In this document: piece after piece, positions 1 through 48,056 of the stretch
Numbering within the stretch: the first letter of the stretch is position 1
Layout of the letters: each line of letters starts with the position of its first letter
Virus record (IMG/VR): IMGVR_UViG_3300025314_000032
Location: 1-48,056 of that record
Direction: 5' to 3' (one strand)
Length of the DNA: 48,056 nucleotides
Source: a virus
Position numbers and translations under genes: made by a program
Notes under the pieces: model-generated
Told to the model about the DNA's origin: nothing
Seen by the model: only the letters and a program-made list of their open reading frames with translations
The model's database searches: none

Positions 1-1
1 T

Positions 2-295
2 ACATCCCTGTCAGCAGGTAAATATTACCGTTGCTGGAATTGCGGTTTCATTTGCGATGCTGACAGGGATGTAACAGGTGATGGAGACGGCAGGGCTTAT
101 ACGGATTTTACCGTCACATCACAAGGATCAGCAGATATGTCAGACCCTGTAAACGGCTTTGTAGTCTTAGATGGCATAAACGAAGGACACGTTGCATTAA
201 AAGAAATGGCAGATGGGACAACTGAAGTTATTACCCATAACTTCAAGGTTCAGGGTAATGGGTGCCCCAATTGCCATTCGCAAAATTATAAATGA
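2..295 (+). CDS. Zinc-ribbon protein, 3' part (gene split by the contig ends)
   Basis: This is the C-terminal part of a gene that starts at 47841. Joined across the terminal overlap it encodes about 123 residues. Two zinc-knuckle pairs are visible: CWNC near residues 37-40 and CPNC close to the C-terminus, which together would form one zinc ribbon. The bases before position 14 are probably not genuine. It sits between the scaffold gene and the head genes, so a virion or assembly role is plausible but not shown. I do not recognise the family. Confidence 0.8.
   Translation, partial: TSLSAGKYYRCWNCGFICDADRDVTGDGDGRAYTDFTVTSQGSADMSDPVNGFVVLDGINEGHVALKEMADGTTEVITHNFKVQGNGCPNCHSQNYK
14..139. repeat. 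Terminal direct overlap, left copy
   Basis: These 126 bases are identical to the last 126 bases of the window (47931-48056). The reading frame of a zinc-ribbon gene continues from the right copy into the sequence after the left copy. The overlap therefore marks a circular assembly, or a circularly permuted genome, cut inside that gene. The first 13 bases of the window lie outside the overlap and do not match the sequence before the right copy. Confidence 0.95.
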
Positions 296-3660: not shown

Positions 3661-4587
3661 TTGGATGGGTACACCTTACTTAGAGAGCTTAGAGTCTTAT
3701 TGGGTGAGCCGTCAAACGGGTCATTCTTGGATGACAGGACTTCATATGATTGTCTGTATGAGGCGGCAAGAGAGTTATGTCAGAGAACAAGAGCGCTAAC
3801 TGCAACTCAAACGATAACCACAGTTGCCGAGCAGACGACTTACAATCTCAATCCTGATTTCCTGTCGTTATATCTTACTGATGATGAGAATGATTATATC
3901 ATAAAATATAATGACGGCTCATCCAATACATTTCTAAGGCATAGGGCTTATGACGCTATAATACTTGGCGATAATACTACATCTCAATCCGTCCCTGATC
4001 AGTTTACACTTGTAGACGCATCCGGCATATCTCAATTAACAGGCACAGCAACATCTACGGCAGCGGCATCTAATGGCGAGGCGACATTAACCGATACGGC
4101 AGCATCGTTCACCAATGTAGCCGCCGGTGATTATGTCCATAACTTAACTGATGGCAGTCATGGCGTAGTGGTATCAAAGACCTCTTCAACAGTCCTTGTG
4201 TGTGCATTATTCGATGGTACAAACAACGATTGGACATCGGCGGATTCGTATATCATCACATTTAATGGCAGGTTTGCTTTACTCCTTGACCCTCCTCCAT
4301 CTACTGCAAGCCATACGATTACGGTACAATATATTCAAATGCCGACACCTGTATATTCACCTTACAAGGCGTACAGGTTCGCTCCTGATTACAAGGAAGC
4401 ACTTGTCTACTATGCGGCATTTAAGTATAAGTACCGTGATCGTGAGCCTGATTTCGGCGATAGGTTATGGAAACATTTTGATGCAAGAGTTCGAGGTATT
4501 ACCAGAGATACCAGACAGGCAAAAGTTCAAGGTGGATACAGGGTAAACTTTATTAAGCCTGCAAACCGTTCAGGAACGAGGAGATAA
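3661..4587 (+). CDS. Head-tail adaptor (T7 gp11 tubular-A type)
   Basis: 308 residues starting at TTG, with AGGAG 10 bases upstream; the preceding stop abuts the start. The N-terminal helix-rich part (LLRELRVLLGEP, then an AARELCQRTRALTA helix) and C-terminal part (FAPDYKEALVYYAAFKYKYRD, followed by RLWKHFDARVR) match the pattern of podovirus adaptor proteins that dock the tail to the portal. Between them (about 125-205) lies a Thr/Ala-rich beta insertion. The order adaptor then nozzle matches T7-like phages. Confidence 0.65.
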   Translation: MDGYTLLRELRVLLGEPSNGSFLDDRTSYDCLYEAARELCQRTRALTATQTITTVAEQTTYNLNPDFLSLYLTDDENDYIIKYNDGSSNTFLRHRAYDAIILGDNTTSQSVPDQFTLVDASGISQLTGTATSTAAASNGEATLTDTAASFTNVAAGDYVHNLTDGSHGVVVSKTSSTVLVCALFDGTNNDWTSADSYIITFNGRFALLLDPPPSTASHTITVQYIQMPTPVYSPYKAYRFAPDYKEALVYYAAFKYKYRDREPDFGDRLWKHFDARVRGITRDTRQAKVQGGYRVNFIKPANRSGTRR

Positions 4588-13339: not shown

Positions 13340-15342
13340 TGCGCCATATTTTTCAATCACATTTTAAGGATGGCCAAGGACGTGTAATTTCGGGAGCAAC
13401 AGTTACTGTTTATCTTACTAATACGACAACGATTGCAACTATTTACAGTTCCTTAACAGGCGGCAGTCCTGTAACGAGTGTTACTACGGCAGCCGATGGA
13501 TCATTCGCTTTCTACGTCTCGGATTCGGATTTCAGTCTTAATCAAAAGTTTAAGATCACCCTTACAAAGACTGATTTCGCCACGAAGTCTTACGACAATA
13601 TCACTATCTTTGCACCTGTACCAACGGCCATATATTACGTGGATGCCAATGAAACAGATCAGGGAGCGGTTGGCAACGGCTATTCCCTCAAGGACATCAT
13701 AGATGCGGCAGGGTCAAACAATGTGACGATAAAGTTCAGGAACAGTTCCGGCTCTGCTACGACATCGTATACATTGACAACATCGGAGACTATACCGGCT
13801 ACTTGTGCCATAGAGTTAGAGCAGGGAGCTAAGATTGTTCAGGGTGGTACGGCCACACTTACTATCAACGGCCCTGTAGTTGGCAAACCGATGCACCAGT
13901 GGCTGAGTGGGTTTGCGGCGGATACAATAGTATTTAATGGAGGAATAATATGTCCTGAGTGGTTTGGAGCTAAAGGTGATGGGGATGGCATTGGAGGAGG
14001 AACAAACGACTATATAGCGCTGCAACTCGGATTAAATATAATCAATTTACGAGTAAACGCTACAACATTAAAATTTAATAAAAGAATATATAGATGTGAC
14101 TCCAAACTCACTATGATTAGTAGTGAAACTGGAGGCAACAGGCACACTAATGTACGTATTATTGAGGGCAATGGGGTAATTATTGATTTTTCTGCGTCTG
14201 GGTTGACTGGAACTATTAGCCAGACGTTTAGGAATATTTTATTAAATATAGGAACAGAAGTTAATATATCAGACCCAGCAAGTCCTGAGTGCATTATAGA
14301 ACAAGGGTTGCTAAAGGTGTCAGATTTGAAGATTATTGGGCCTGAAATACGTAGACCAGATACACCAGACGCAACTATTCCACTAACGGCTACTGTCGGT
14401 TTAAGATTACAACTTGCAAGTGATGTACAGCTAAATAATATAATAGTTACAGATTGCACCGCAGGATATGAAACTAAAGATAGCTTCCCAATTAATGCCA
14501 ATAATGTGATTGCACGTAATTGTTGGATAGGTAGATATATCTTAGGTGGTAGCACTATTGCACAGTGGATTGGTTTTTCCGCCGTGCAGTGCGCATATGC
14601 AACTATATTGCAATCATCAACTATCAGTACATCGCCTATATATGGATATGCCGCATCTATATCAGACCAAACTTTTTCCGGTGATAGGGTTGAGGATTGT
14701 TGGTATGCTTATGTTATTTATCCCCATGATGCAGCAATAAGAAATATACGTATACTTGACACTTATGGTGAAGGCACTTTATATGATTTTGCCATTAGTG
14801 GTTTTGCCTTTAATATTGACTATATTGGAGCACCAGCATCAACACTAACAACCCCTACATCAGTAATAGTAGATAGGTTGTTTATGTTTCCAGGAAAAGC
14901 GGCTTTTAATGGTGCCTCTGGGTCATATAAGTTATTACGAGTCCCGTTGAGTCCTGATGCAAACCACGCCCATTGCAAATTAACATTACCTGGGTTAACT
15001 TCTGATATTTCAGGAACTTTTTTAAAGTCTATTATTGAATTGATAGGTAATGACACAGGTAATGCAGGGGTAATTAATATTACTGATAATAGTGGCAATA
15101 ATGTAATGACTATAGACGCCTATAATCAGTATATTAGAACTAATAGGCTATATATAGACTCTGAGGGGAGTGGGATAACAGGAACAATATTATTAACCAA
15201 TACTACAGAAGATGCGGGTGGTGGGGCCTCTACATTACCTACATCAGATGCAACACATGGGCCTTCTAATGCTGTTGGCGATGGGTGGGTTAAACTATTC
15301 GTTGGAACCCAAACTGTTTGGGTTCCATACTGGAATGATTAG
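13339..15342 (+). CDS. Tailspike with pectate-lyase-type beta-helix
   Basis: 667 residues. The N-terminal domain (about 1-95; MRHIFQSHFKDGQGRVISG) has an Ig or carboxypeptidase-regulatory-like look. A beta-helix then opens with ICPEWFGAKGDG at about 205-216, the signature of pectate-lyase-superfamily tailspikes, and short strands follow to residue 600. The C-terminal 60 residues look like a trimerisation or head-binding end (GDGWVKLFVGTQTVWVPYW). It probably binds and may degrade host surface polysaccharide. GGAGGAGAATA precedes the ATG. Catalytic residues cannot be assigned by eye. Confidence 0.75.
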   Translation: MRHIFQSHFKDGQGRVISGATVTVYLTNTTTIATIYSSLTGGSPVTSVTTAADGSFAFYVSDSDFSLNQKFKITLTKTDFATKSYDNITIFAPVPTAIYYVDANETDQGAVGNGYSLKDIIDAAGSNNVTIKFRNSSGSATTSYTLTTSETIPATCAIELEQGAKIVQGGTATLTINGPVVGKPMHQWLSGFAADTIVFNGGIICPEWFGAKGDGDGIGGGTNDYIALQLGLNIINLRVNATTLKFNKRIYRCDSKLTMISSETGGNRHTNVRIIEGNGVIIDFSASGLTGTISQTFRNILLNIGTEVNISDPASPECIIEQGLLKVSDLKIIGPEIRRPDTPDATIPLTATVGLRLQLASDVQLNNIIVTDCTAGYETKDSFPINANNVIARNCWIGRYILGGSTIAQWIGFSAVQCAYATILQSSTISTSPIYGYAASISDQTFSGDRVEDCWYAYVIYPHDAAIRNIRILDTYGEGTLYDFAISGFAFNIDYIGAPASTLTTPTSVIVDRLFMFPGKAAFNGASGSYKLLRVPLSPDANHAHCKLTLPGLTSDISGTFLKSIIELIGNDTGNAGVINITDNSGNNVMTIDAYNQYIRTNRLYIDSEGSGITGTILLTNTTEDAGGGASTLPTSDATHGPSNAVGDGWVKLFVGTQTVWVPYWND

Positions 15343-15388
15343 TTAACTTAACACCCTTGTCAGCTATGGCGAAACATGATTTAATTTC

Positions 15389-15417
15389 TTGACAGGATTT
15401 CTCAGCAGGTGTAAAGT
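15389..15417 (+). promoter_or_regulatory. Early promoter 1 (TTGACA-N17-TAAAGT)
   Basis: A perfect -35 box at 15389-15394, a 17-base spacer and TAAAGT at 15412-15417 (4 of 6 matches). It lies in the non-coding gap after the spike gene and before the first early gene, so it should start the early operon and the leader RNA that follows. Confidence 0.7.
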
Positions 15418-15433
15418 TACAGCATAACTCAAC

Positions 15434-15545
15434 GGTAGAGGACGCTACCATCAACTTTAAACTTATACATAGCCCCCAAAGACAGCACGATACCCGTTGT
15501 GCCATACTGCGTCCTCAGTCGTCTTTTGGGGGCTTTTTATTATTT
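15434..15545 (+). ncRNA. Y-shaped leader RNA element 1 with kissing loops
   Basis: Leader hairpin GGTAG/CTACC at 15434-15449 has the 6-nt loop AGGACG (15439-15444). Then a closing stem AGCCCCCAAAGAC (15471-15483) pairs with GTCTTTTGGGGGCT (15521-15534), with one bulge. Inside are hairpin P2 (15485-15490 with 15497-15502) and P3 (ACTG/CAGT, 15506-15519). The P3 loop CGTCCT (15510-15515) is the exact complement of the leader loop. A T-rich run follows (15535-15545), so the element can also terminate the late operon. The ribosome site of the first early gene lies a few bases on. Confidence 0.7.
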
Positions 15546-15559
15546 TAAGGGAGGGACAA

Positions 15560-15868
15560 ATGTCTTTTAAAGCGATTTTAGATTCACCACGTCCGCTAAA
15601 GAGCGGGCTGGTAACAGTCACAATGACCTGCAAAAAATCAGATTTGCACAGTATAGTTGACCTTATGGGTTTAACGGTTACAGTTTACGGTGAAAACGAA
15701 GCGCAAATCACAGACGACAGGGCGGTATCCCTTGCACGTATCAGGAGCCTTGCCGAGCAGGTGGCGGAGGCTATTGACAAGGAGCTTCAGGCTAATGACG
15801 ATAGCGAGGCAAAATGGACTACGGGTTTAATGACAGCAATGGAGTTTGAGAAGGAGAGTGGAAAATGA
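15560..15868 (+). CDS. Hypothetical early protein
   Basis: 102 residues from the ATG at 15560, chosen because GGGAGGG lies 5 bases upstream; the frame stays open upstream but would enter the RNA element. It has an N-terminal beta part and a C-terminal acidic helix (AEQVAEAIDKELQANDDSEA). It is the first gene of the early operon, and its stop overlaps the ATG of the Sak4-like ATPase gene (ATGA), suggesting coupled translation. No family recognised. Confidence 0.7.
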   Translation: MSFKAILDSPRPLKSGLVTVTMTCKKSDLHSIVDLMGLTVTVYGENEAQITDDRAVSLARIRSLAEQVAEAIDKELQANDDSEAKWTTGLMTAMEFEKESGK

Positions 15869-16914
15869 TCGAACTATCAGAGCCGGAAACACCGGCATTT
15901 CTTAAAATGGGATTTTTCGGCAATACTGCAACAGGCAAGACCTTCACGGCGGCAAAGGTATTGTCACAGTTCATTAGGGATTTCTGTCCTGATAAACAGC
16001 TTTGTTTCTATGATACAGAACCTTCGGCGGGCTATATCAAGGACATGGTTTACGAGATTACCGGAAAGAAGCTTCTTGCCATTCACAGCCGGTCATTTTC
16101 AGACTTAGTGCAGTTCATGGACTTATGCAGGGACAAGGGACATGTGGCGTTAATTGACTCGATTACCCATCCGTGGCGGTCACTCGTTGAGGATTACCTC
16201 TCAGCGAAGCGTAGCAGGGTCGCAGGGGTCGGTGGCAATGCCGCTAATACAAAACTGTCCCTGAAGGACTGGGGGCCGTTAAAAGAGATGTGGGGCGTGT
16301 TCTCGTCTAAATTTGCATGGGATCCTATTCATGTCTGCATTGTCGGACGTGAAGGAGACGTATGGGAGTCTGAAGAAGACGAAGAAGGCCACTCAGAAAT
16401 GAAAAAGACTGGCGTTAAGATGAAGACGGAGACCGAAACAGGATTTGAACCGTCCTTATTAATACAAATGAAATTGATTAATAGTCAACATTTGGCATAT
16501 GTGGTCAAAGATAGGTTTAATGTACTCACTGGCAAAACTTCAGGCAATAACCCTGATATAGAATTCTTCATGCCTCATATTAAAAGGATCAACCTTGGCG
16601 GTCAAGGCTACACCGAAAACAAGCCGGAGCCGGTGTTCAAGAATACTTATGGATTAAGCCTTGAGACAATCAAGGTTCAGAGGGCAGCGATCTTAGAGAC
16701 CATCAAGGATGATATGATGCTGTTATATCCGGGTATGACGGCAGATGACAAGACTGGCAGGATAAAATTAATGCGAAAGGCTTTCGGGACATCAAGCTGG
16801 ACATCTTTGGAGGAGGATTACAAACAATTCCCGAAAGAAAAACTTGAGGCAGGGCTGGCAATAATCAAGGCTTTACAACCTAAAGAGGAGGAAACAGTAT
16901 GTCAAGAAACATAG
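15865..16914 (+). CDS. Sak4/RecA-like ATPase (phage recombination)
   Basis: 349 residues. The P-loop GNTATGKT is at 19-26 and a Walker B-like VALID at 94-98, on a RecA-type core with DTEP near 50-53. Phage Sak4-type single-strand annealing/recombination ATPases have this size and plan and are encoded with an SSB-like partner, here the next gene, which overlaps by 16 bases. It probably acts in recombination-dependent replication or repair. A general phage AAA_24 nucleotide-binding protein is the alternative name. Confidence 0.7.
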   Translation: MIELSEPETPAFLKMGFFGNTATGKTFTAAKVLSQFIRDFCPDKQLCFYDTEPSAGYIKDMVYEITGKKLLAIHSRSFSDLVQFMDLCRDKGHVALIDSITHPWRSLVEDYLSAKRSRVAGVGGNAANTKLSLKDWGPLKEMWGVFSSKFAWDPIHVCIVGREGDVWESEEDEEGHSEMKKTGVKMKTETETGFEPSLLIQMKLINSQHLAYVVKDRFNVLTGKTSGNNPDIEFFMPHIKRINLGGQGYTENKPEPVFKNTYGLSLETIKVQRAAILETIKDDMMLLYPGMTADDKTGRIKLMRKAFGTSSWTSLEEDYKQFPKEKLEAGLAIIKALQPKEEETVCQET

Positions 16915-17357
16915 ACGATATAGCAACCGGAGATTTTTCATTTCCCGAAGCTGGAAAGCATGGCTGTCGGTGTATGGGATGGAAAAAGGTGTTGGCAAAG
17001 AATTCAGGCAATAGCGGGATTGAACTCAGATGGGCTACCCATGACGGCGAGAGCAGCTTCACAGATACCCTGTGGCTGACCCCTAAAGCGATAGGAAGGC
17101 TTGCTTTGGTGGCAAAGAAGCTATGTTCAGGTGCAAGGGAGCTTGAACTGGACGATGACGATTCTAAGGCCATATGGCAGCTTGCAGAACTTATCGAGGA
17201 GACCATTGAGGGTGTCAATGCCATTGTGGAAATTGTAGCTTACAAGGAAACCTTTATACATGAGTCAGGTGACAAGATCGGGCAGAAGGAAACCAGGGAT
17301 AAGAAGCGAGTGGCATTTGCCGGATATGAAAGAGATGAGGCAGAGGATATTTTTTAA
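16899..17357 (+). CDS. DUF669-like / putative phage SSB
   Basis: 152 residues. The N-terminal two thirds show an alternating strand pattern (GIELRWATHDGESSFTDTLWL, a Pro/Lys turn, then a helix), as in DUF669 proteins thought to bind single-stranded DNA beside Sak4-type recombinases. The C-terminus is acidic and ends in EAEDIF, like the acidic aromatic-terminated tails of SSBs. It starts inside the ATPase gene and stops one base into the next gene. The SSB role is inferred from context and tail. Confidence 0.55.
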   Translation: MSRNIDDIATGDFSFPEAGKHGCRCMGWKKVLAKNSGNSGIELRWATHDGESSFTDTLWLTPKAIGRLALVAKKLCSGARELELDDDDSKAIWQLAELIEETIEGVNAIVEIVAYKETFIHESGDKIGQKETRDKKRVAFAGYERDEAEDIF

Positions 17358-17524
17358 TGGAAGTTAAGTGCAATAAAACTGGGAAATATACAAATACCTG
17401 TAAGGAGTGTAAACATAGCATAGCTCATCAGGCAGATAAATGTACGAAGTGGGATAATTGCGGGATTATAAGTGTCCGGTGCTGTAACGTGAAATTTAAC
17501 CTGAAATGCTGGGATAAAACTTAA
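17357..17524 (+). CDS. Small Cys-rich protein
   Basis: 55 residues with nine cysteines, including CKEC and RCCN, so at least one zinc site is likely. The ATG overlaps the stop of the previous gene (TAATG). It belongs with several other tiny Cys-rich proteins in this genome (18016, 24625, 27298, 33114). Function unknown. Confidence 0.65.
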   Translation: MEVKCNKTGKYTNTCKECKHSIAHQADKCTKWDNCGIISVRCCNVKFNLKCWDKT

Positions 17525-17539
17525 TCTAAAGGATGAACT

Positions 17540-18019
17540 ATGAAAACGTATGTAGGCATAGATAACGGTGTTTCTGGAACCATCAGCATTTTGACAGAGC
17601 AGAGCGTGTATCATTTCGACACGCCCGTAAAGAAGGAGCAATCTTATACCAAGACAAAGCAGATGATTAGCCGGATAGACTATGTAGGTCTCAGGGATGG
17701 CCTTATGGGACGCTTAATGGGCAATTCTGGCGTCTTCTGCCTTCTGGAAAGGCCGATGGTTAACCCTGGACGGTTTAAGGCCACAGCGTCAGCTCTGAGA
17801 GCTTTGGAGGCTACTTTGATTGTACTGGAGCGGCTCAATATTCCCTTCCAATACATAGACTCAAAGGAGTGGCAACGGTACTTGTTGCCTAAAGGAATTG
17901 AGAAGGATGAGTTGAAGAAGGCTGCCCTTGATGTTGCGAAACGGCTGTTTCCACAGGTGCAGACTAAGGATGCAGATTCATTATTAATCGCTGAGTATGC
18001 AAGGAGGATGAGATTATGA
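17540..18019 (+). CDS. RuvC-like Holliday-junction resolvase
   Basis: 159 residues. RuvC/RNase H-fold signatures are an N-terminal YVGIDNG with Asp8, a second acidic strand CLLERP, a helix-rich middle and a C-terminal acidic motif KDADSLLIAEYA. This is the expected set of four acidic residues of a RuvC family resolvase, at nearly the usual length (bacterial RuvC about 170). It would cut branched DNA produced by replication and recombination. A second junction/flap nuclease candidate lies at 20839. Confidence 0.75.
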   Translation: MKTYVGIDNGVSGTISILTEQSVYHFDTPVKKEQSYTKTKQMISRIDYVGLRDGLMGRLMGNSGVFCLLERPMVNPGRFKATASALRALEATLIVLERLNIPFQYIDSKEWQRYLLPKGIEKDELKKAALDVAKRLFPQVQTKDADSLLIAEYARRMRL

Positions 18020-18186
18020 CTTGTAAATCATGCGGCAAAGAAATTGTATGGCTGAAGACGAAAAATGGTAAAAACATGCCTGTGAACGCTAACACAATAC
18101 AGGGGAAAGAAACAATCTACGATCACAAGATTGGTCATATTAGCCACTTCAGCGATTGCAAGGATGCTGACAAGTTCAGGAAGTAG
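18016..18186 (+). CDS. Small zinc-ribbon-like protein
   Basis: 56 residues beginning MTCKSCGKEIVWLKTKNGK with MPVNA following, then an H-x-x-H-F-x-x-C segment. CxxC plus the His/Cys cluster near residues 41-48 would bind one zinc ion. Similar tiny proteins are common in phage replication regions; no function is established. Its ATG overlaps the resolvase stop. Confidence 0.7.
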   Translation: MTCKSCGKEIVWLKTKNGKNMPVNANTIQGKETIYDHKIGHISHFSDCKDADKFRK

Positions 18187-18203
18187 GAGGTTATAATTTT
18201 ATC

Positions 18204-18232
18204 TTGACAAGATTATGGCTACCTGGTACATT
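18204..18232 (+). promoter_or_regulatory. Early promoter 2 (TTGACA-N17-TACATT)
   Basis: Perfect -35 at 18204-18209, 17-base spacer, TACATT at 18227-18232 (4 of 6 matches). It lies in a 215-base gene-free gap and drives Y-element 2 and the replication genes. Confidence 0.65.
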
Positions 18233-18241
18233 GACGGGGTA

Positions 18242-18382
18242 ATACTGGAAAACGTAAATACAGTATGATAAACCCATTAACCCTATCAAGAAATAGTCCT
18301 CGGAAGTCAGGTTGCGTTAACATCCTGAGACCCACAAAATCCCATTTTGTCGGTTTACGTCTTCCGGGGACTGTTTGTTTTT
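18242..18382 (+). ncRNA. Y-shaped leader RNA element 2
   Basis: Leader hairpin ATACTG/CAGTAT (18242-18266) carries ACGTAAA in its loop (18252-18258). The 12-bp closing stem is AGTCCTCGGAAG (18295-18306) with CTTCCGGGGACT (18361-18372), one G-U pair. Inner hairpins are TCAGG/CCTGA (18307-18328) and ACAAAAT/ATTTTGT (18334-18350). TTTACGT (18354-18360), just before the 3' arm of the closing stem, complements the leader loop exactly. The tail GTTTGTTTTT and an AGGAAGGG ribosome site follow. Confidence 0.7.
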
Positions 18383-18401
18383 AGGAAGGGTATATCCATT
18401 C

Positions 18402-19148
18402 ATGTCTTCACCGTCTCGTAGATGGGTTAAGGTTTGGCACGAAATTTTATCCGATCATAAATTTCAGGATTTATCGTTAGAACAACAAGCAAGATTCTAT
18501 AATTTATTGGTATATATGTCTGTTCATGGGAATAAGGGAAACTTACAAATCAATCCTCCAGCACGATCTTTAATATCACTATTTCAATGTACTGATTTTG
18601 ACCATTTATTGGTATGTTTAAAAACATTACCAAATATCAAAATTGAAACGCCATGTGATAACGCTCAACTTGGCGTTACATTTATAAACTGGTCAAAATA
18701 TCAAATAGATTCAACCAGTTATGATAGGGTTCAAAGATACAGAGAAAAGCATAATGAAACGCTCCATGTAACGCCTATAGATAAGAGTAAGAATAAGAGT
18801 AAGAATAAGATAAGAAAAGAGAATACATTATATAGTCCGAACTCTGACGAGTTCCGACTTTCGGCTATTTTATTATCTTATATAAAAAACCGTGATACTA
18901 CATTCAAGTCACCTGATCTACAGTCATGGTCAAAACATATTGATCTCATGATTCGAGTTGATGGACGATTAGTTGCCGAAATTGAAGACGTTATTAAACT
19001 TTGTCAACAGGATAAATTCTGGCAAAACAATATTTTATCAACGGACAAATTACGTAAACATTTCGGTCAATTAAAGCTGAAATTATTAAACAAAACTGCA
19101 ACAACGGCCAACGATTTAGTAATGCAAGGGAAAATTCTACCATTATGA
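18402..19148 (+). CDS. Replication initiator-like protein
   Basis: 248 residues from the ATG at 18402, chosen for the AGGAAGGG upstream rather than the in-frame TTG at 18375. The first 100 residues (RRWVKVWHEIL ... QARFYNLLVYMSVHG) look like the winged-helix start of phage replication organisers. A basic linker with tandem KSKNK units (about 129-138) leads to a helical C-terminal domain. The layout resembles lambda O or DnaD-like loaders, and the helicase gene follows with a 4-base overlap. This block is more A/T-rich than 15.5-18.2 kb, suggesting a separately acquired module. Confidence 0.6.
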   Translation: MSSPSRRWVKVWHEILSDHKFQDLSLEQQARFYNLLVYMSVHGNKGNLQINPPARSLISLFQCTDFDHLLVCLKTLPNIKIETPCDNAQLGVTFINWSKYQIDSTSYDRVQRYREKHNETLHVTPIDKSKNKSKNKIRKENTLYSPNSDEFRLSAILLSYIKNRDTTFKSPDLQSWSKHIDLMIRVDGRLVAEIEDVIKLCQQDKFWQNNILSTDKLRKHFGQLKLKLLNKTATTANDLVMQGKILPL

Positions 19149-20842
19149 AAATATACGGTGATTATAAAATAGAACTGCAAGGCAGGACAGGGATTGAAGT
19201 AGCAACAACCTGTCCACAGTGTTCAGCAGTAAGAAAAAAGAAAAATAGTCGGTGTTTGTCAGTTAATACCGATAAAGGGGTATGGTATTGTCATCATTGT
19301 GGATGGGTTGGATCGTTAAAGTATGGGACGGAAAAACAACCGGAGAAACAACGGTATTATATTAAGCCGCAATATGCTGTCACTGGAAAACCATCGTCAA
19401 GCCTTTTTGAATGGTTTGGTAAACGCAAAATATCGAACGAAACAGTGCAAAGATATTCTATTTCTATACAGGAAGCATATATGCCTACTGTTGAAGGCAA
19501 TATACCTTGCATTGCTTTTCCATATATCAAGGCTGGAGAAGTTGTAAATATTAAATACAGGTCAAAGCAGAAAGACTTTAGACAAATAGCCGGAGCAGAA
19601 AAAATACTATTTGGTATTGACGATATTAAAAATGAATCATGGGCAATTATTGTTGAAGGTGAAATTGATAAATTGTCTTTTGCGGAAGCTGGTATTTATA
19701 ATGCTATATCTGTTCCAGATGGTGCGCCGCCTCCAGGATCAAAAAGCTCTGATATTAAATTTGAGTATCTTGAAAATTGTAAAGATTATCTGGATAAATT
19801 GGAGAAGATAATAATAGCAGTTGATAATGATCCTGCAGGGAAAACATTAGAACAGGAATTAATACGGCGATTAGGTATTGAAAGATGTTGGCGGGTTACA
19901 TGGCCTGAAGAATGTAAAGATGCCAATGATATTTTATTGCATTATGACAAGGATGAGTTGCATAGATTAATTAATGAAGCAAGACCATACCCGCTTGAAG
20001 GTGTTATTGAGCCGGATGATGTTATATTTGATGTATTAGCATTGTATCAGCAAGGGGTTAAATTGGGGGTGTCAACAGGATGGATAGGGCTTGATAGACA
20101 TTATACTGTAAGGCCAGGCGAAATGACTATAATTACGGGAGTGCCGTCTCATGGAAAATCGCAATTTCTTGATGCGATGATGGTTAATATAGCACTCGAA
20201 GAAGGATGGCGATTTGCCATTTGTAGTCCTGAGAATTTACCAGTTGAACGGCATATAGCAAAATTGATTGAGCAGTATTCAGGGTTTCCATTTCATGAAG
20301 GCTATAACATGAGGTTGCCCGCAGAAGAATTATCCAATTGCATGACATGGCTGAATAAATATTTCAAATTTATCGTACCCGAAGAAACCATGAGTATTGA
20401 GAAATTAATAGAAACAGCCAAAAAAGTTGTTAAGCGATATGGAATTACTGGACTTATTATTGACCCTTGGAATGAATTTGATCATACAAGGCCAAATGGA
20501 GTATCTGAAACAGAACACGTGTCAATATATCTTGGCAAGTTAAGAAGATTTGCACGAAACAATAAGGTTCATGTTTGGGTAGTAGCACATCCGCAAAAAT
20601 TATATCGTAATGCTGATGGTTCATATCCAGTGCCTACTCCATACGAGATTAGCGGTTCAGCACATTTTAGAAATAAAGCCGATAACTGTTTAACTGTATG
20701 GCGAGATGAACAGGAATATAATCGGGATGTTAAGATTTTTGTACAGAAAATCAGGTTTAAGGAAATAGGTAAAACCGGAGAAGTTACACTGCAATATAAT
20801 TCAGTGAATGGTAAATATAAAGATACGGGGGTATTAGCATGA
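19145..20842 (+). CDS. Primase-helicase (T7 gp4 / Twinkle type)
   Basis: 565 residues. An N-terminal zinc ribbon has CPQC at 23-26 and CHHC at 49-52. A Toprim domain follows with VEGEIDKLSFAEAG (Glu171) and AVDNDPAG (Asp227, Asp229). The C-terminal RecA-like DnaB helicase domain has Walker A GVPSHGKS at 332-339 and Walker B GLIID at 436-440. It would unwind DNA at the fork and prime the lagging strand. No DNA polymerase gene is seen, so host polymerase III is probably used. Confidence 0.9.
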   Translation: MKIYGDYKIELQGRTGIEVATTCPQCSAVRKKKNSRCLSVNTDKGVWYCHHCGWVGSLKYGTEKQPEKQRYYIKPQYAVTGKPSSSLFEWFGKRKISNETVQRYSISIQEAYMPTVEGNIPCIAFPYIKAGEVVNIKYRSKQKDFRQIAGAEKILFGIDDIKNESWAIIVEGEIDKLSFAEAGIYNAISVPDGAPPPGSKSSDIKFEYLENCKDYLDKLEKIIIAVDNDPAGKTLEQELIRRLGIERCWRVTWPEECKDANDILLHYDKDELHRLINEARPYPLEGVIEPDDVIFDVLALYQQGVKLGVSTGWIGLDRHYTVRPGEMTIITGVPSHGKSQFLDAMMVNIALEEGWRFAICSPENLPVERHIAKLIEQYSGFPFHEGYNMRLPAEELSNCMTWLNKYFKFIVPEETMSIEKLIETAKKVVKRYGITGLIIDPWNEFDHTRPNGVSETEHVSIYLGKLRRFARNNKVHVWVVAHPQKLYRNADGSYPVPTPYEISGSAHFRNKADNCLTVWRDEQEYNRDVKIFVQKIRFKEIGKTGEVTLQYNSVNGKYKDTGVLA

Positions 20843-21351
20843 AATATGATAGAAAAGCACACCCTTTAATTTATAAAGGGAGATTGTACAGAAGCACGTT
20901 AGAGGTTAAGTGGGCAGTGTTTTTTGATTATTTAGGATGGAAATTTGAATATGAACCTATGAGCTTCAATAATTGGATTCCTGATTTTGCATTATATGGG
21001 CATAATCAGATAATTTTGATTGAAGTAAAACCTATTTGTGAATTTGATAAAGAAGTTGCAGCAAAAATATTGACTGCATCAGGAGGTAAATATGAAATAT
21101 TATTGTTGGGATTAAAACCTGATTGGGAAACTAATCGTTTAGGATGGCTTTATGAAAAAGACTGGGGCATGGGTTGGGATGAGGGTTGGATAAATGCAAA
21201 TAAGAAATATGGTTTTTATCATTGTTCGGGTAGTTATAGAGACCGTATAACTGGTGAATATGATGGAGATAATCATTTGAGGACACCAATGCTGAATGAA
21301 ATAGAATTATTATGGAATGAAGCATGTAATAAAGTTCAATGGTTAAAATAA
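20839..21351 (+). CDS. PD-(D/E)XK nuclease, DUF1064/TnsA-like
   Basis: 170 residues. The first half shows a PD-(D/E)XK active site: a helix with YRSTLEVKWAVFF (Glu), then WIPDFAL (Asp) and ILIEVKP (Glu-x-Lys). This matches DUF1064-like phage nucleases and the TnsA endonuclease core. The second half, rich in Trp, Gly and Tyr, is not recognised. It follows the helicase with a 4-base overlap, so a replication or recombination nuclease is likely. Confidence 0.75.
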   Translation: MKYDRKAHPLIYKGRLYRSTLEVKWAVFFDYLGWKFEYEPMSFNNWIPDFALYGHNQIILIEVKPICEFDKEVAAKILTASGGKYEILLLGLKPDWETNRLGWLYEKDWGMGWDEGWINANKKYGFYHCSGSYRDRITGEYDGDNHLRTPMLNEIELLWNEACNKVQWLK

Positions 21352-21364
21352 CGAGGAGGGTATC

Positions 21365-21559
21365 ATGTCTGAGATAACTTTTATCGCAAGTTTACACAAG
21401 GTTCAAATTGACAGAGAGGGCGAGTCGAGGATCACGCTAACCATTCCGATGTCAGAACGGGAGGCGGTACTTGCTGTCAGTATGCTCACAGAGACGGCTT
21501 TGCGTGTTCTGGTAGCAGTTGACGGGGCTGGGAATACCGGAGGCAGGGCTGAGGGGTAA
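21365..21559 (+). CDS. Hypothetical small protein
   Basis: 64 residues, with an alternating strand pattern (ESRITLTIPM) then a helix and a Gly-rich tail. CGAGGAGGG precedes the ATG. G/C content is higher than in the upstream replication genes. No family recognised. Confidence 0.6.
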   Translation: MSEITFIASLHKVQIDREGESRITLTIPMSEREAVLAVSMLTETALRVLVAVDGAGNTGGRAEG

Positions 21560-21591
21560 GACGGGTTAAAACGGCAAATAGGGGGCTTAAA

Positions 21592-21939
21592 ATGGATTAT
21601 ATGGACTGGAAACAGGACAAGTTATACCAGAAATACCTGATATTGGGATATAAGGAATGGGAGTCTAAGGCACAGAAAACACTCAAGGGGACGCCGTATT
21701 TTGTGCAGAAAGGATTCATTGAGGGGAATACGATATTGTTTTTCATCACGGTGTATGTATATCTCCATGATGATGGCAAGATAGGGTATAGGCCTGAGAT
21801 ACAGTTTAGAACTAAGGACAAAAAATATATTGAAGTTATGGTCATCGAGGATAATGTCACCCCTACATGGCTGGAGAAATTCTGTATGAGGCTGTACCGG
21901 CAGATGGAATGTCTGCCGTATGGGAAAAAAGACTCTTGA
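21592..21939 (+). CDS. Hypothetical protein
   Basis: 115 residues, aromatic- and Lys-rich, with alternating strands in the middle (ILFFITVYVYLHDD, YRPEIQFRTKD). AGGGGGC lies near the ATG. The promoter for Y-element 3 begins in its last codons. No family recognised. Confidence 0.6.
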   Translation: MDYMDWKQDKLYQKYLILGYKEWESKAQKTLKGTPYFVQKGFIEGNTILFFITVYVYLHDDGKIGYRPEIQFRTKDKKYIEVMVIEDNVTPTWLEKFCMRLYRQMECLPYGKKDS

Positions 21940-21964
21940 CAGACATGTAATATTTTGGTATAGT
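21936..21964 (+). promoter_or_regulatory. Promoter 3 (TTGACA-N17-TATAGT)
   Basis: Perfect -35 at 21936-21941, 17-base spacer and TATAGT at 21959-21964 (5 of 6 matches): the best sigma70-type promoter in the window. It overlaps the end of the preceding gene and drives Y-element 3 and TnpB. Confidence 0.8.
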
Positions 21965-21969
21965 TCACA

Positions 21970-22099
21970 TTGTGAAATCTATGGTAGGAAAATCACACAC
22001 AATTAAACTACTAACCCATATGGGGGTTTTGGTGTCCGTCAGCAGTAATGCTATCGGGGGCGACTTACCACGCCTTTCACAACACCAAAATCCCCATAT
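21970..22099 (+). ncRNA. Y-shaped leader RNA element 3
   Basis: An 18-bp closing stem with one G-U pair joins 22018-22035 and 22082-22099. Inside are AGCA/TGCT and a GGCG/CGCC-based hairpin. TTGTGAAA (21970-21977), at the expected 5' end of the transcript, is the exact complement of TTTCACAA (22075-22082), just before and overlapping the 3' arm of the stem by one base. This is the same arrangement as in element 2. A GGAGGG ribosome site for tnpB follows 9 bases on. It could instead be the left end of the TnpB element. Confidence 0.65.
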
Positions 22100-22119
22100 T
22101 TGTTTGTGGAGGGACAAAG

Positions 22120-23313
22120 ATGCTTCGTGCCCATAAAATCAGACTATACCCTAACAATAAGCAAGAGACCCACTTATTGCAGTCTTGTGGTGTAGCTCGC
22201 TTTTCTTATAATTGGGCATTGGGTGAGTGGGGGCGGCAGTATAAAGAAGGCTTAAAACCGTCAGAGATGAGCCTACGGAAACAACTCAATGCCGTGAAAA
22301 GAGAGGAGTTCCCCTGGATGATGGATGTTTCCAAATGTGCGCCACAGGAAGCCATCATAAATCTCGGCATAGCCTTCAAAAACTTCTTTGCAGGACGGGC
22401 AAAGTATCCAAGATTCAAGAAGAAGGGGCGGAGAGATTCGTTTAAGCTGACCGTTGGACAGTTTGAGGTTAAGAATTTTAAAATCCGGATTCCCAAAATC
22501 GGATTGGTTAAGATGCGTGAAGCTCTTAGATTCTCAGGCCGTCCAGTAAGTGTAACAATCTCTCGTATAGCTGATGAGTGGTATGCCTCTATTGCTGTTG
22601 AGACCAATGATTTACCTGCCAAGTGCGAAAACCAAGCTGCGGTAGGAGTTGATCTCGGTATCAAGATGCTTGCCACGTTTTCAGATGACAGACAGAGTAT
22701 AGAGGGTGCAAAAGCATTCAAAGTTTTATTGCCAAGGTTACGCCGCTTGTCTCGTTCTGTCAGTAGAAAAGTAAAAGGTTCGTGCAATAGAAAGAAAGCT
22801 GTTCTCAAACTGGCGAAACTCCATGCTCGCATTGCCAATGTTCGCAACGATAGTATCCACAAGCTCACAACCATGCTCACTTCCAGTTATGCGTGGATTG
22901 CTATTGAGGACTTGAATGTCAAAGGCATGATGAGTAATGGTAAGCTGGCACGGCATATTGCAGACGGCGCCTTTTCAGAAGTACGCCGCCAGTTGGAATA
23001 CAAGGCCAAGATGAGAGAAAACCATGTGGCCGTTGTCAGTAGATGGTTTCCTTCATCGAAAACCTGTAACGTATGTGGGTGTATCAACAAATTCCTCACT
23101 CTTGCAGACAGGGAATGGACATGTTTAGGATGCGGAGCAGTTCACGACAGAGACAAAAATGCAGCAAAGAACATACTTGCCGTGAGTTGCACGGTGACGG
23201 CCTGTGGAGGGAACGGCGCTGGCTCCGGTCGAAAGACTGGAACGAAACTGTCCCCCGTGAAGCAGGAATATAGCAGCAAATCCACATTTAATCAGATTTG
23301 CGTAGGTCTATAG
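22120..23313 (+). CDS. tnpB: TnpB RNA-guided nuclease (IS605/IS1341 OrfB)
   Basis: 397 residues from the ATG at 22120, chosen for GGAGGG 6 bases upstream. The RuvC-like active site appears intact: VGVDLG (Asp178), AIEDLN (Glu263) and HDRDKNAAKNIL (Asp343/345). A zinc finger CNVCG ... CLGCG (316-338) lies between the last two. TnpB is guided by an omega RNA from the 3' end of its element to cut the donor or target site. No tnpA is nearby, so it is a stand-alone copy that would need a transposase in trans or has become a phage gene. It is controlled by a phage-type promoter-leader-ribosome-site unit. Confidence 0.93.
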   Translation: MLRAHKIRLYPNNKQETHLLQSCGVARFSYNWALGEWGRQYKEGLKPSEMSLRKQLNAVKREEFPWMMDVSKCAPQEAIINLGIAFKNFFAGRAKYPRFKKKGRRDSFKLTVGQFEVKNFKIRIPKIGLVKMREALRFSGRPVSVTISRIADEWYASIAVETNDLPAKCENQAAVGVDLGIKMLATFSDDRQSIEGAKAFKVLLPRLRRLSRSVSRKVKGSCNRKKAVLKLAKLHARIANVRNDSIHKLTTMLTSSYAWIAIEDLNVKGMMSNGKLARHIADGAFSEVRRQLEYKAKMRENHVAVVSRWFPSSKTCNVCGCINKFLTLADREWTCLGCGAVHDRDKNAAKNILAVSCTVTACGGNGAGSGRKTGTKLSPVKQEYSSKSTFNQICVGL

Positions 23314-23415
23314 GAACGGTTGGCTCAGAAAGCAGTCCCGTAGCCGGACGAGGAGAACATTGACGGTATGGGTAGCGTCAGGGGCTATCAGGAGCAGGAA
23401 GGCAGGGAATATATA
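23314..23415 (+). other. tnpB 3' flank, candidate omega-RNA / right-end region
   Basis: This G/C-rich, gene-free stretch after tnpB contains short inverted repeats (GACG/CGTC at 23360-23380 and GTAGC/GCTAT nearby). In IS605-type elements the guide-carrying omega RNA is read from the end of tnpB into the right-end hairpin, so it should lie here. I cannot fix the exact element end or guide by eye. Confidence 0.4.
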
Positions 23416-23874
23416 ATGCTATTTAAGTCTACCATATCAGGTTACGAGGTTACATATTGCAATGTCACAGGGATTTATCAGGTGCTTGACGGGGAAGCTG
23501 TATTGAAGGAATCTAAGAGTTTTAATGTTATAGAGAAATATATAGAGACTGACGGTAGCAGCGAAAAGAAGGAGAAGAAGCAGAGGTTAGAGAAAAAAAT
23601 GATATTTTACGGATATGGCAAATATGAAGAGGGAACAATCACCAGTATGGCAGAGGAAAGCAGGTATGGTTCAGGGTCTCAAGTATGGCTCATGATTGAC
23701 GGCAAAAGACAGAAAGAACTATTAAGGGATTGCCTTGATTATAATAAGGAAAATTTGAATAAGATTGCTGAAATTAAGTTACTGGAGAAACAGAGAGAAA
23801 TATTAGGTAAAAATATTACAACGATACATAATTCGCTAACCAAGGTCACATTGGCAATGTTGGTGCAAGAATGA
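23416..23874 (+). CDS. Hypothetical protein
   Basis: 152 residues from the ATG at 23416, which has AGGAAGG upstream; an in-frame ATG at 23368 would lie in the tnpB flank. A basic/acidic helical middle (SSEKKEKKQRLEKKM) leads to a beta part and a C-terminal helix (LLEKQREILGKNI). It is the first phage gene after the TnpB insertion. No family recognised. Confidence 0.6.
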   Translation: MLFKSTISGYEVTYCNVTGIYQVLDGEAVLKESKSFNVIEKYIETDGSSEKKEKKQRLEKKMIFYGYGKYEEGTITSMAEESRYGSGSQVWLMIDGKRQKELLRDCLDYNKENLNKIAEIKLLEKQREILGKNITTIHNSLTKVTLAMLVQE

Positions 23875-24077
23875 CCTGTCCTGTAGACAACGATAATAAG
23901 GATCAGGCATATATAGGCAAAAAGTCATGTGGATGTGTTGTCGCAATTACGACGGGTAGCAAAAAGGAGATGGCTAAGGATGTACGAGGATACCTTATGT
24001 CAGGGTATGACGTGGAATTGACAACCATAAAAGATGGGAAAAGTAGGCTGAAGAGATGTGTTCACGATAAGAAATAA
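23871..24077 (+). CDS. Small Cys/His protein
   Basis: 68 residues with a GKKSCGCVVAITTG segment and a C-terminal RCVHDKK, giving C-x-C and C-x-H pairs that could hold a metal. Its ATG overlaps the previous stop. The end of the gene provides the upstream part of Y-element 4. Function unknown. Confidence 0.65.
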   Translation: MTCPVDNDNKDQAYIGKKSCGCVVAITTGSKKEMAKDVRGYLMSGYDVELTTIKDGKSRLKRCVHDKK

Positions 24078-24172
24078 GGTAGCGGGAGCGATGGTATCTA
24101 AGAACACTACGGATACCCTAAGACGCTGAAAGAATATCGGTAGATATACCGACGGTCGCCTCCCGCTAAGGA
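24058..24172 (+). ncRNA. Y-shaped RNA element 4
   Basis: Closing stem TAGCGGGAGCGA (24080-24091) pairs with TCGCCTCCCGCTA (24156-24168), with one bulged C. Inner hairpins are GGTATC/GATACC (24093-24117) and TCGGTA/TACCGA with a GATA loop (24137-24152). The first inner loop holds GAACAC (24102-24107), complementary to GTGTTC upstream (24058-24063). The AGGAG ribosome site of the next gene touches the foot of the stem. No good promoter of its own is seen. Confidence 0.6.
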
Positions 24173-24180
24173 GAAAAATC

Positions 24181-24402
24181 ATGACGACAGAAAACAAAGA
24201 CACGGTAATAGAAGCGTTAATAGAACGGTTCGGAAAGCCTGTAATGTATGCGGGATATTGCATAATAGGAATGTCTGAAGCTCAGCAAAATACAGACCTT
24301 ATTCGTGCCTCCTGTGAGAACATTTACCAGTCTGGATATTTGCAGGGTAAGTACGATGCGCTGGAGGAGTTCCTGAAGGCGTGTAAGGGAGAGAAAATAT
24401 GA
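24181..24402 (+). CDS. Hypothetical protein
   Basis: 73 residues, mostly helical, with an AGGAG site directly at the foot of Y-element 4. That makes it the gene most likely to be controlled translationally by the element. Its stop overlaps the next ATG. No family recognised. Confidence 0.65.
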   Translation: MTTENKDTVIEALIERFGKPVMYAGYCIIGMSEAQQNTDLIRASCENIYQSGYLQGKYDALEEFLKACKGEKI

Positions 24403-31757: not shown

Positions 31758-31873
31758 AGAGCGAACGATGTAAGTTGTTGATTCTAAAGGGGGTAGTTGA
31801 TACCTGAATATAGCCACAGCTAAACTTGGTTAATCCCCAGTGATATTTGGGTATCTATTTTTGATATTTAGTG

Positions 31874-36087: not shown

Positions 36088-36166
36088 TGCGGGGTGGCTG
36101 GAGTTGGCCCCAGTGCCAGTCTCATAAGCTGGAAAGACGTGGGTTCGAGTCCCACCCCCGCTACCA
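36088..36166 (+). tRNA. tRNA with CAU anticodon (Met or Ile2), CCA encoded
   Basis: A full cloverleaf: acceptor TGCGGGG/CCCCGCT with a T-T mismatch at the first pair, D stem GCTGG/CCAGT, anticodon stem CCAGT/GCTGG with loop CTCATAA (CAT at 36123-36125), T arm GTGGG-TTCGAGT-CCCAC, then A and CCA (36164-36166). The unpaired 1-72 position recalls initiator tRNAs, but the anticodon stem lacks their three G-C pairs. Elongator Met or lysidine-modified Ile2 are the alternatives. Confidence 0.93.
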
Positions 36167-47844: not shown

Positions 47845-48056
47845 GAGAAGGGTCTCGTCATGTCAGGTATAGTCAGCGTCGTATCAGGGGTGAGAAGCGT
47901 ACACTCCCCATGTACGGCGAAGGCGATGACGCAGGTAAATATTACCGTTGCTGGAATTGCGGTTTCATTTGCGATGCTGACAGGGATGTAACAGGTGATG
48001 GAGACGGCAGGGCTTATACGGATTTTACCGTCACATCACAAGGATCAGCAGATATG
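47841..48056 (+). CDS. Zinc-ribbon protein, 5' part (continues at position 14)
   Basis: This part has 72 codons; the ATG overlaps the scaffold stop (ATGA). A basic N-terminus (REGSRHVRYSQRRIRGEK) leads to CWNCGFICD, and the rest of the gene lies at 14-295. It is translationally coupled to the scaffold gene. Confidence 0.8.
   Translation, partial: MREGSRHVRYSQRRIRGEKRTLPMYGEGDDAGKYYRCWNCGFICDADRDVTGDGDGRAYTDFTVTSQGSADM
47931..48056. repeat. Terminal direct overlap, right copy
   Basis: 126 bases identical to 14-139; see the left copy. The coding frame across the overlap shows that it belongs to one continuous gene. Confidence 0.95.

What the first reader, a model, noticed from the sequence alone, without database searches (positions are those of the whole stretch)
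15389..24172. Four Y-shaped RNA elements with the same plan but unrelated sequences
Seen in sequence: elements at 15434-15545, 18242-18382, 21970-22099 and 24058-24172 each have a 12-18 bp closing stem, two inner hairpins and, 0-14 bases after the stem, a ribosome binding site. Each also has an upstream segment complementary to a place inside the Y: 15438-15445 with 15509-15516, 18252-18258 with 18354-18360, 21970-21977 with 22075-22082, and 24058-24063 with 24102-24107. The first three start from TTGACA-N17-TANNNT promoters. A shared fold with different bases in every helix is what selection on structure produces. Inference: a phage leader-RNA family controlling early genes by attenuation, antitermination (HK022 put-like) or gating of the ribosome site. 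I know no named RNA class with this layout.
Basis: partly seen in the sequence, partly recalled or inferred. Interest (0 to 1): 0.85.

Follow-up and report, generated by a model that had tools for sequence, protein, structure and literature searches.

The report
Repeated structured leader RNA in phage
An uncultivated bacterial virus, like its only known relative with this region, carries a similarly folded RNA segment right after each of its three early promoters, each copy with its own sequence, which probably acts as a switch for the genes behind it.

Summary
Three of the four elements (E1, E2, E3) are real and promoter-linked; the fourth (E4) does not belong with them. A relative (L020/L062, 88-91% identical over the longest matching stretches) keeps E1 and E3 with compensatory stem changes. 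In place of E2 it has E2b, with the same plan and unrelated sequence. A covariance model built only from E1 and its orthologue finds E2 and E2b as its best two other sites (weak E-values, 0.5-0.6 in 488 kb) and nothing in a further 1.37 Mb. The upstream segment pairs with the loop of hairpin 2 in E1 (6x6-nt loops), E2b (7x7) and E3 (7-8 bp); in E2 the pairing is at chance level. Predicted folding of growing transcripts favours the upstream:loop pairing until the 3' arm of the closing stem emerges; then the Y wins. The Y ends in a U-rich tail and abuts the ribosome site. I read these as cis-acting attenuator-type leaders of early replication operons. The structure is well supported, the mechanism is inference, and the trigger is unknown. 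Rfam has no match.

The parts
15389..15417 (+). E1 promoter TTGACA-N17-TAAAGT
   Evidence: kept in L020:1697-1725
15434..15449 (+). E1 hairpin 0, GGTAG[AGGACG]CTACC, loop complementary to loop of hairpin 2
15471..15534 (+). E1 Y: closing stem arms 15471-15483 and 15521-15534, hairpin 1 15485-15502, hairpin 2 15506-15519 ACTG[CGTCCT]CAGT
15534..15555 (+). E1 U-rich tail 15534-15546 and ribosome site AAGGGAGGG 15547-15555; basal helix pairs 15455-15461 with the tail end and first bases of the ribosome site
18204..18232 (+). E2 promoter TTGACA-N17-TACATT
18242..18266 (+). E2 hairpin 0, ATACTG...CAGTAT, with ACGTAAA 18252-18258 (pairing with 18354-18360 is at chance level)
18291..18376 (+). E2 Y: closing arms 18291-18306 and 18361-18376, hairpin 1 18307-18328, hairpin 2 18334-18350
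18373..18390 (+). E2 U-rich tail and ribosome site GGAAGGG
21936..21964 (+). E3 promoter TTGACA-N17-TATAGT
   Evidence: orthologue L020:6067-6095
21982..21988 (+). E3 upstream segment TGGTAGG, pairs with CTTACCA 22064-22070 in the loop of hairpin 2
22018..22099 (+). E3 Y: closing arms 22018-22035 and 22082-22099, hairpin 1 22036-22057, hairpin 2 22059-22074; basal helix 22008-22015 with 22101-22109
22099..22113 (+). E3 U-rich tail TTTGTTTG and ribosome site GGAGGG
24075..24173 (+). E4 palindromic hairpin element between TAAGG repeats; judged not a member
   Evidence: absent in L020 and L200; no promoter

Best explanation
E1, E2 and E3 are 5' leader RNAs of three early operons of this phage, built on one plan: promoter, an upstream segment (in E1 and E2b the loop of a small hairpin), an A-rich flank, a long closing stem, hairpin 1, hairpin 2 whose loop is complementary to the upstream segment, the 3' arm, a U-rich tail and the ribosome site. 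As RNA polymerase copies the leader, the upstream segment first pairs with loop 2 (an anti-fold). When the 3' arm emerges, the Y takes over. The Y resembles a leaky intrinsic terminator, and its basal helix pairs the U-rich tail and the edge of the ribosome site. The balance between the folds sets read-through or translation of the genes behind. Shown computationally: the fold, its conservation through compensatory change, the promoter link, and the predicted order of folds. Inferred: that transcripts start there, that termination or translation is controlled, and that there is a trigger (protein, polymerase speed or another signal).
For: z-scores -3.3 to -5.0 for E1-E3 and their orthologues. 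Compensatory changes: three both-sided pairs in E3 and 98.9% of cells paired against 38-52% for slid partners; two both-sided pairs, no broken pair and two base pairs lost from both arms together in E1. Swapping arms between orthologues costs 7-13 kcal/mol. E1 hairpin 0 and hairpin 2 are unchanged while stems vary. E2b in the relative: same plan, unrelated sequence, same place. The E1-only covariance model finds E2 and E2b as its top other sites and nothing in a further 1.37 Mb. Upstream:loop 2 pairing p = 5e-4 (E1), 5e-4 (E2b), 0.035 and 0.0035 (E3 and orthologue). This pairing is the minimum-energy fold of growing transcripts before the 3' arm is made in E1, E1b, E2b, E3 (partly) and E3b. 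E3 is kept although the gene behind it differs, TnpB against HNH.
Against: Only two viruses carry it. E2 does not show the upstream pairing beyond chance nor the early anti-fold. The covariance hits on E2 and E2b are weak one by one (E 0.5-0.6), and the E3 model does not find E1 or E2. The terminator character is good only in E1; the U-rich tails of E2 and E3 are partly paired. No expression data. The two pairings could coexist as a kissing complex instead of excluding each other.
Confidence: 0.45

Rival explanations
1. RNA antitermination elements that work like HK022 put: the folded leader binds RNA polymerase and makes it ignore later terminators.
For: Directly behind early promoters, as putL is (PMC9378689); all three strong + strand early promoters carry one.
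Against: Different size and plan, no shared sequence among copies, while putRNAs share sequence. Few intrinsic terminators are seen in the early region apart from the elements themselves.
Confidence: 0.12
2. RNase III processing sites or 5' stabilisers, as in T7 early messengers: the long irregular duplex beside the ribosome site is cut or protects the 5' end.
For: Long imperfect duplex ending at the ribosome site in all copies; unrelated sequences would be tolerated by RNase III.
Against: Does not explain the upstream segment matching loop 2 nor the unchanged hairpins 0 and 2.
Confidence: 0.15
3. Independent small RNAs that end at the Y, with the ribosome site served by transcripts from further upstream.
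For: Own promoter, strong fold and U-rich tail; E3 is kept while the gene behind it changes.
Against: In every copy the ribosome site lies 0-14 nt behind the Y and its edge is paired by the basal helix.
Confidence: 0.1
4. Sites bound by a phage or host protein that represses translation, with the fold only as a scaffold and no switching.
For: Unchanged loops in orthologues, varying stems.
Against: Loop sequences differ completely between copies in one genome, so one protein would have to read shape alone.
Confidence: 0.1
5. Chance: strong but unrelated hairpin structures near promoters, without a common function.
For: Y folds are common in this DNA and E2's upstream pairing is at chance level.
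Against: Exact full-loop complementarity in two unrelated elements, compensatory changes, and the covariance model result.
Confidence: 0.08

Closest known systems
Transcription attenuators with mutually exclusive antiterminator and terminator (for example the B. subtilis rplJL leader, PMC4538822, listed)
   Same: Promoter-proximal leader, early-forming pairing that competes with a terminator-like stem with a U-rich tail.
   Different: Here the competing pairing is with the loop of the second hairpin of a three-way junction, the plan is repeated in several operons with unrelated sequence, and no ligand, ribosome or protein signal is known.
HK022 putRNA (PMC9378689)
   Same: Structured RNA behind phage early promoters, acting in cis.
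   Different: putRNA is ~70 nt, a V of two stem-loops, with sequence shared between copies; no closing stem, U-rich tail or adjacent ribosome site.
T7-type RNase III sites of early messengers (general knowledge)
   Same: Irregular duplexes next to ribosome sites in phage early messengers.
   Different: No upstream pairing partner is part of that plan, and those sites lie between genes.
conAn antitermination of pLS20 conjugation operons (PMC8955417)
   Same: RNA element at the start of an operon of a mobile element.
   Different: conAn is a pair of an RNA and a protein reading through more than 20 terminators; neither was found here.

Membership tests
Attenuator leader | Promoter directly upstream, leader ahead of the first gene | tested here: met
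Attenuator leader | Two mutually exclusive folds, one forming earlier | tested here: inconclusive
   predicted for E1, E1b, E2b, E3, E3b, not for E2; a kissing complex is not excluded
Attenuator leader | Intrinsic terminator in the late fold | tested here: inconclusive
   GC-rich stem with strong U-rich tail in E1, weaker tails in E2, E2b and E3
Attenuator leader | Regulated read-through | not testable with these tools
   needs transcription assays
HK022 put | Two stem-loops of ~70 nt with sequence shared between copies | tested here: not met
   closing stem and no shared sequence between E1, E2, E3
HK022 put | Binding to the beta' zinc-binding domain of RNA polymerase | not testable with these tools
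   needs biochemistry
Any Rfam family | Match to one of 4227 covariance models | tested here: not met
   only a tRNA at 36088; none in 15300-24300 up to E 5
T7-type RNase III site | Cleavage by RNase III | not testable with these tools
   needs an enzyme assay
E1 structural family (defined here) | Hit by the covariance model of E1 and its orthologue | tested here: met
   E2 and E2b are the top other hits, weak E-values
E1 structural family (defined here) | E3 hit by the same model | tested here: not met
   E3 shares the plan by fold only

The most novel reading that the evidence does not exclude
A new class of phage leader RNA: a three-way-junction switch gated by pairing of an upstream loop with loop 2, placed after each early promoter, each copy with its own private pairing code so that copies do not cross-talk.
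Probability: 0.35. Interest if true: 0.75.

Novelty: new variant of a known kind. Interest (0 to 1): 0.55.

Why it matters
If right, it shows a phage tying several early operons to one RNA-fold logic instead of one sequence motif, which sequence searches would miss. It also gives small leader switches with predictable pairing codes that can be tested in simple reporters.

Tried and rejected
Pattern scans of viral contigs for conserved pieces of E1 and E3 returned only this virus and L020 as true copies. Scans of bacterial genomes with the AAA protein and the terminase found no relatives, so the host is unknown. Phage records have no close match. A promoter-plus-Y screen of about 2.7 Mb of viral DNA gave one weak look-alike, L151:9510-9665 (6-nt loop match, not found by the E1 model); an intercistronic Y with U-rich tail and ribosome site in L074:3965-4068 has no loop match. 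Neither is counted. The gap census missed E1 and E3 of the window because chance ORFs overlap them, so it rests on L020 copies. The random-mutation control for E3 is mixed: with the same number of changes at random places 0.8% keep the observed energy, but random bases at the observed places do so in 40%; the weight therefore rests on pair counts and arm swaps. The 500-shuffle control on the E3 pair counts is modest (54/500), as only two sequences exist. E3 as an insertion-sequence end of the TnpB gene was rejected, because the relative has E3 without TnpB. Paper searches gave no description of such a class.

Full report
Setting. The window is a 48,056-base virus record. Contig L064 runs across its end and start, so the record is circular or terminally repeated. 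The region 15.3-24.2 kb holds replication and recombination genes on the + strand: a 102-aa protein, an ATPase of phrog_1366, a Holliday junction resolvase, a DnaD-like helicase loader, a primase-helicase and a TnpB. Phage records hold no close relative. One viral contig, IMGVR_UViG_3300025319_000125 (L020/L062), matches in stretches of 73-95% identity, 88-91% over the longest ones.

The observation. E1, E2 and E3 each start from TTGACA-N17-TANNNT and fold as a Y with a closing stem of 13, 16 or 18 bp. All have folding energies well below shuffles (z -3.3, -4.7, -5.0). Y shapes as such are common, so the shape alone is not evidence. E4 has no such promoter and the weakest z-score, and is absent in L020 and L200, where the site reads TAAGG once instead of TAAGG-palindrome-TAAGG. 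I treat it as an insertion, not a member.

Conservation. E1 and E3 are present in L020 behind the same promoters. In E3, 98.9% of cells pair, three pairs of the closing helix changed on both sides and one is broken; slid controls pair 38-52%. In E1 a hand alignment gives 31 unchanged pairs, 2 changed on both sides, 4 on one side, none broken, and two base pairs lost from both arms together. Swapping arms between orthologues costs 7-13 kcal/mol. In E1, hairpin 0 with its linker (21 nt) and hairpin 2 with its linker (17 nt) are unchanged; all differences lie elsewhere.

A further element. At the place of E2, L020 has another promoter (4359-4387) and another Y (E2b, 4423-4517) with unrelated sequence, again ahead of a replication-type gene, but of another family (Phg_2220_C, against DnaD-like). 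Hairpin 0 TGGATG[GTGCGAT]CATTCA and hairpin 2 AAGG[ATCGCAC]CCTT have exactly complementary 7-nt loops. In E1 the 6-nt loops AGGACG and CGTCCT are exactly complementary. In E3 the segment TGGTAGG pairs with CTTACCA in loop 2; in L020 TGGTAAGG pairs with CCTTACCA. Shuffling the leader gives p = 5e-4 (E1), 5e-4 (E2b), 0.035 (E3) and 0.0035 (its orthologue). In a census of 569 Y folds in non-coding gaps of viral DNA held here, the two longest loop 2 matches, 9 and 8 nt, are E2b and the E1 orthologue. For E2 the match is at chance level and lies outside the loop.

One family by model. A covariance model of E1 and its orthologue alone, searched over 488 kb, finds after itself and its complementary strand E2 (16.0 bits, E 0.51) and E2b (15.8 bits, E 0.57). 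A further 1.37 Mb gives nothing at E <= 5. Each E-value is weak, but both best hits fall on places named before the search. The match rests mainly on basal helix, closing stem, U-rich tail and ribosome site. The E3 model finds only E3 and its orthologue, so E3 joins by plan, not by model.

How it may work. In predicted folds of growing transcripts, the upstream:loop 2 pairing is part of the minimum-energy fold until the 3' arm of the closing stem is made, clearly in E1, E1b, E2b and E3b and in part in E3; at full length the Y is better by 10-16 kcal/mol. E2 does not show it. This is the layout of a leader switch. The Y has a U-rich tail (strong in E1, weak in E3), and its basal helix pairs that tail and the first bases of the ribosome site. 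Whether it stops transcription, gates translation or both is open, and the two pairings may instead coexist as a kissing complex. E3 is kept while the gene behind it is TnpB in one phage and an HNH nuclease in the other, so the leader does not depend on the gene it serves.

Verdict. Structure real: about 0.9. Leader of early transcripts: about 0.8. Switch by competing pairings: 0.45. Nothing in Rfam matches. HK022 put differs in size, plan and sharing of sequence. The finding is a repeated attenuator-like leader of an unusual plan, known so far from two uncultivated viruses with unknown host.

Noticed in passing
window 22120-23313; L020:6247-6894: Directly behind E3 lies a TnpB gene without TnpA in the window and an HNH nuclease gene in the relative: two different nuclease genes at the same place behind a conserved leader.
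   Followed up: partly
window 24075-24173: E4: a palindromic hairpin of about 95 nt between TAAGG repeats that duplicate a stop codon and part of a ribosome site; absent in the relative, no other copy found.
   Followed up: partly
L020:7300-7690: A long run of short tandem repeats (GGGATTCTGTC / GGGGCTTCTGTC units) inside a gene of a DUF6745 protein.
   Followed up: no
window 1-73 and 2050-2086: Strong inverted repeats near gene starts in the structural region (for example CCTGCCGGCGGG...CCCGCTGGCAGG).
   Followed up: no
window 14-139 and 47931-48056: The first and last roughly 126 bases match the same stretch of contig L064, that is, the record has a direct terminal repeat or is circular.
   Followed up: no
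L151:9510-9665 and L074:3965-4068: Y-shaped folds with U-rich tails and ribosome sites in unrelated viruses, one behind a TTGACT-N17-TATGAT promoter; possible look-alikes, not supported by the model.
   Followed up: partly
window 31799-31845 and L062:14012-14058: A 47-nt stretch that also matches the relative in inverted orientation within a 600-nt collinear match, pointing to an inverted repeat.
   Followed up: no
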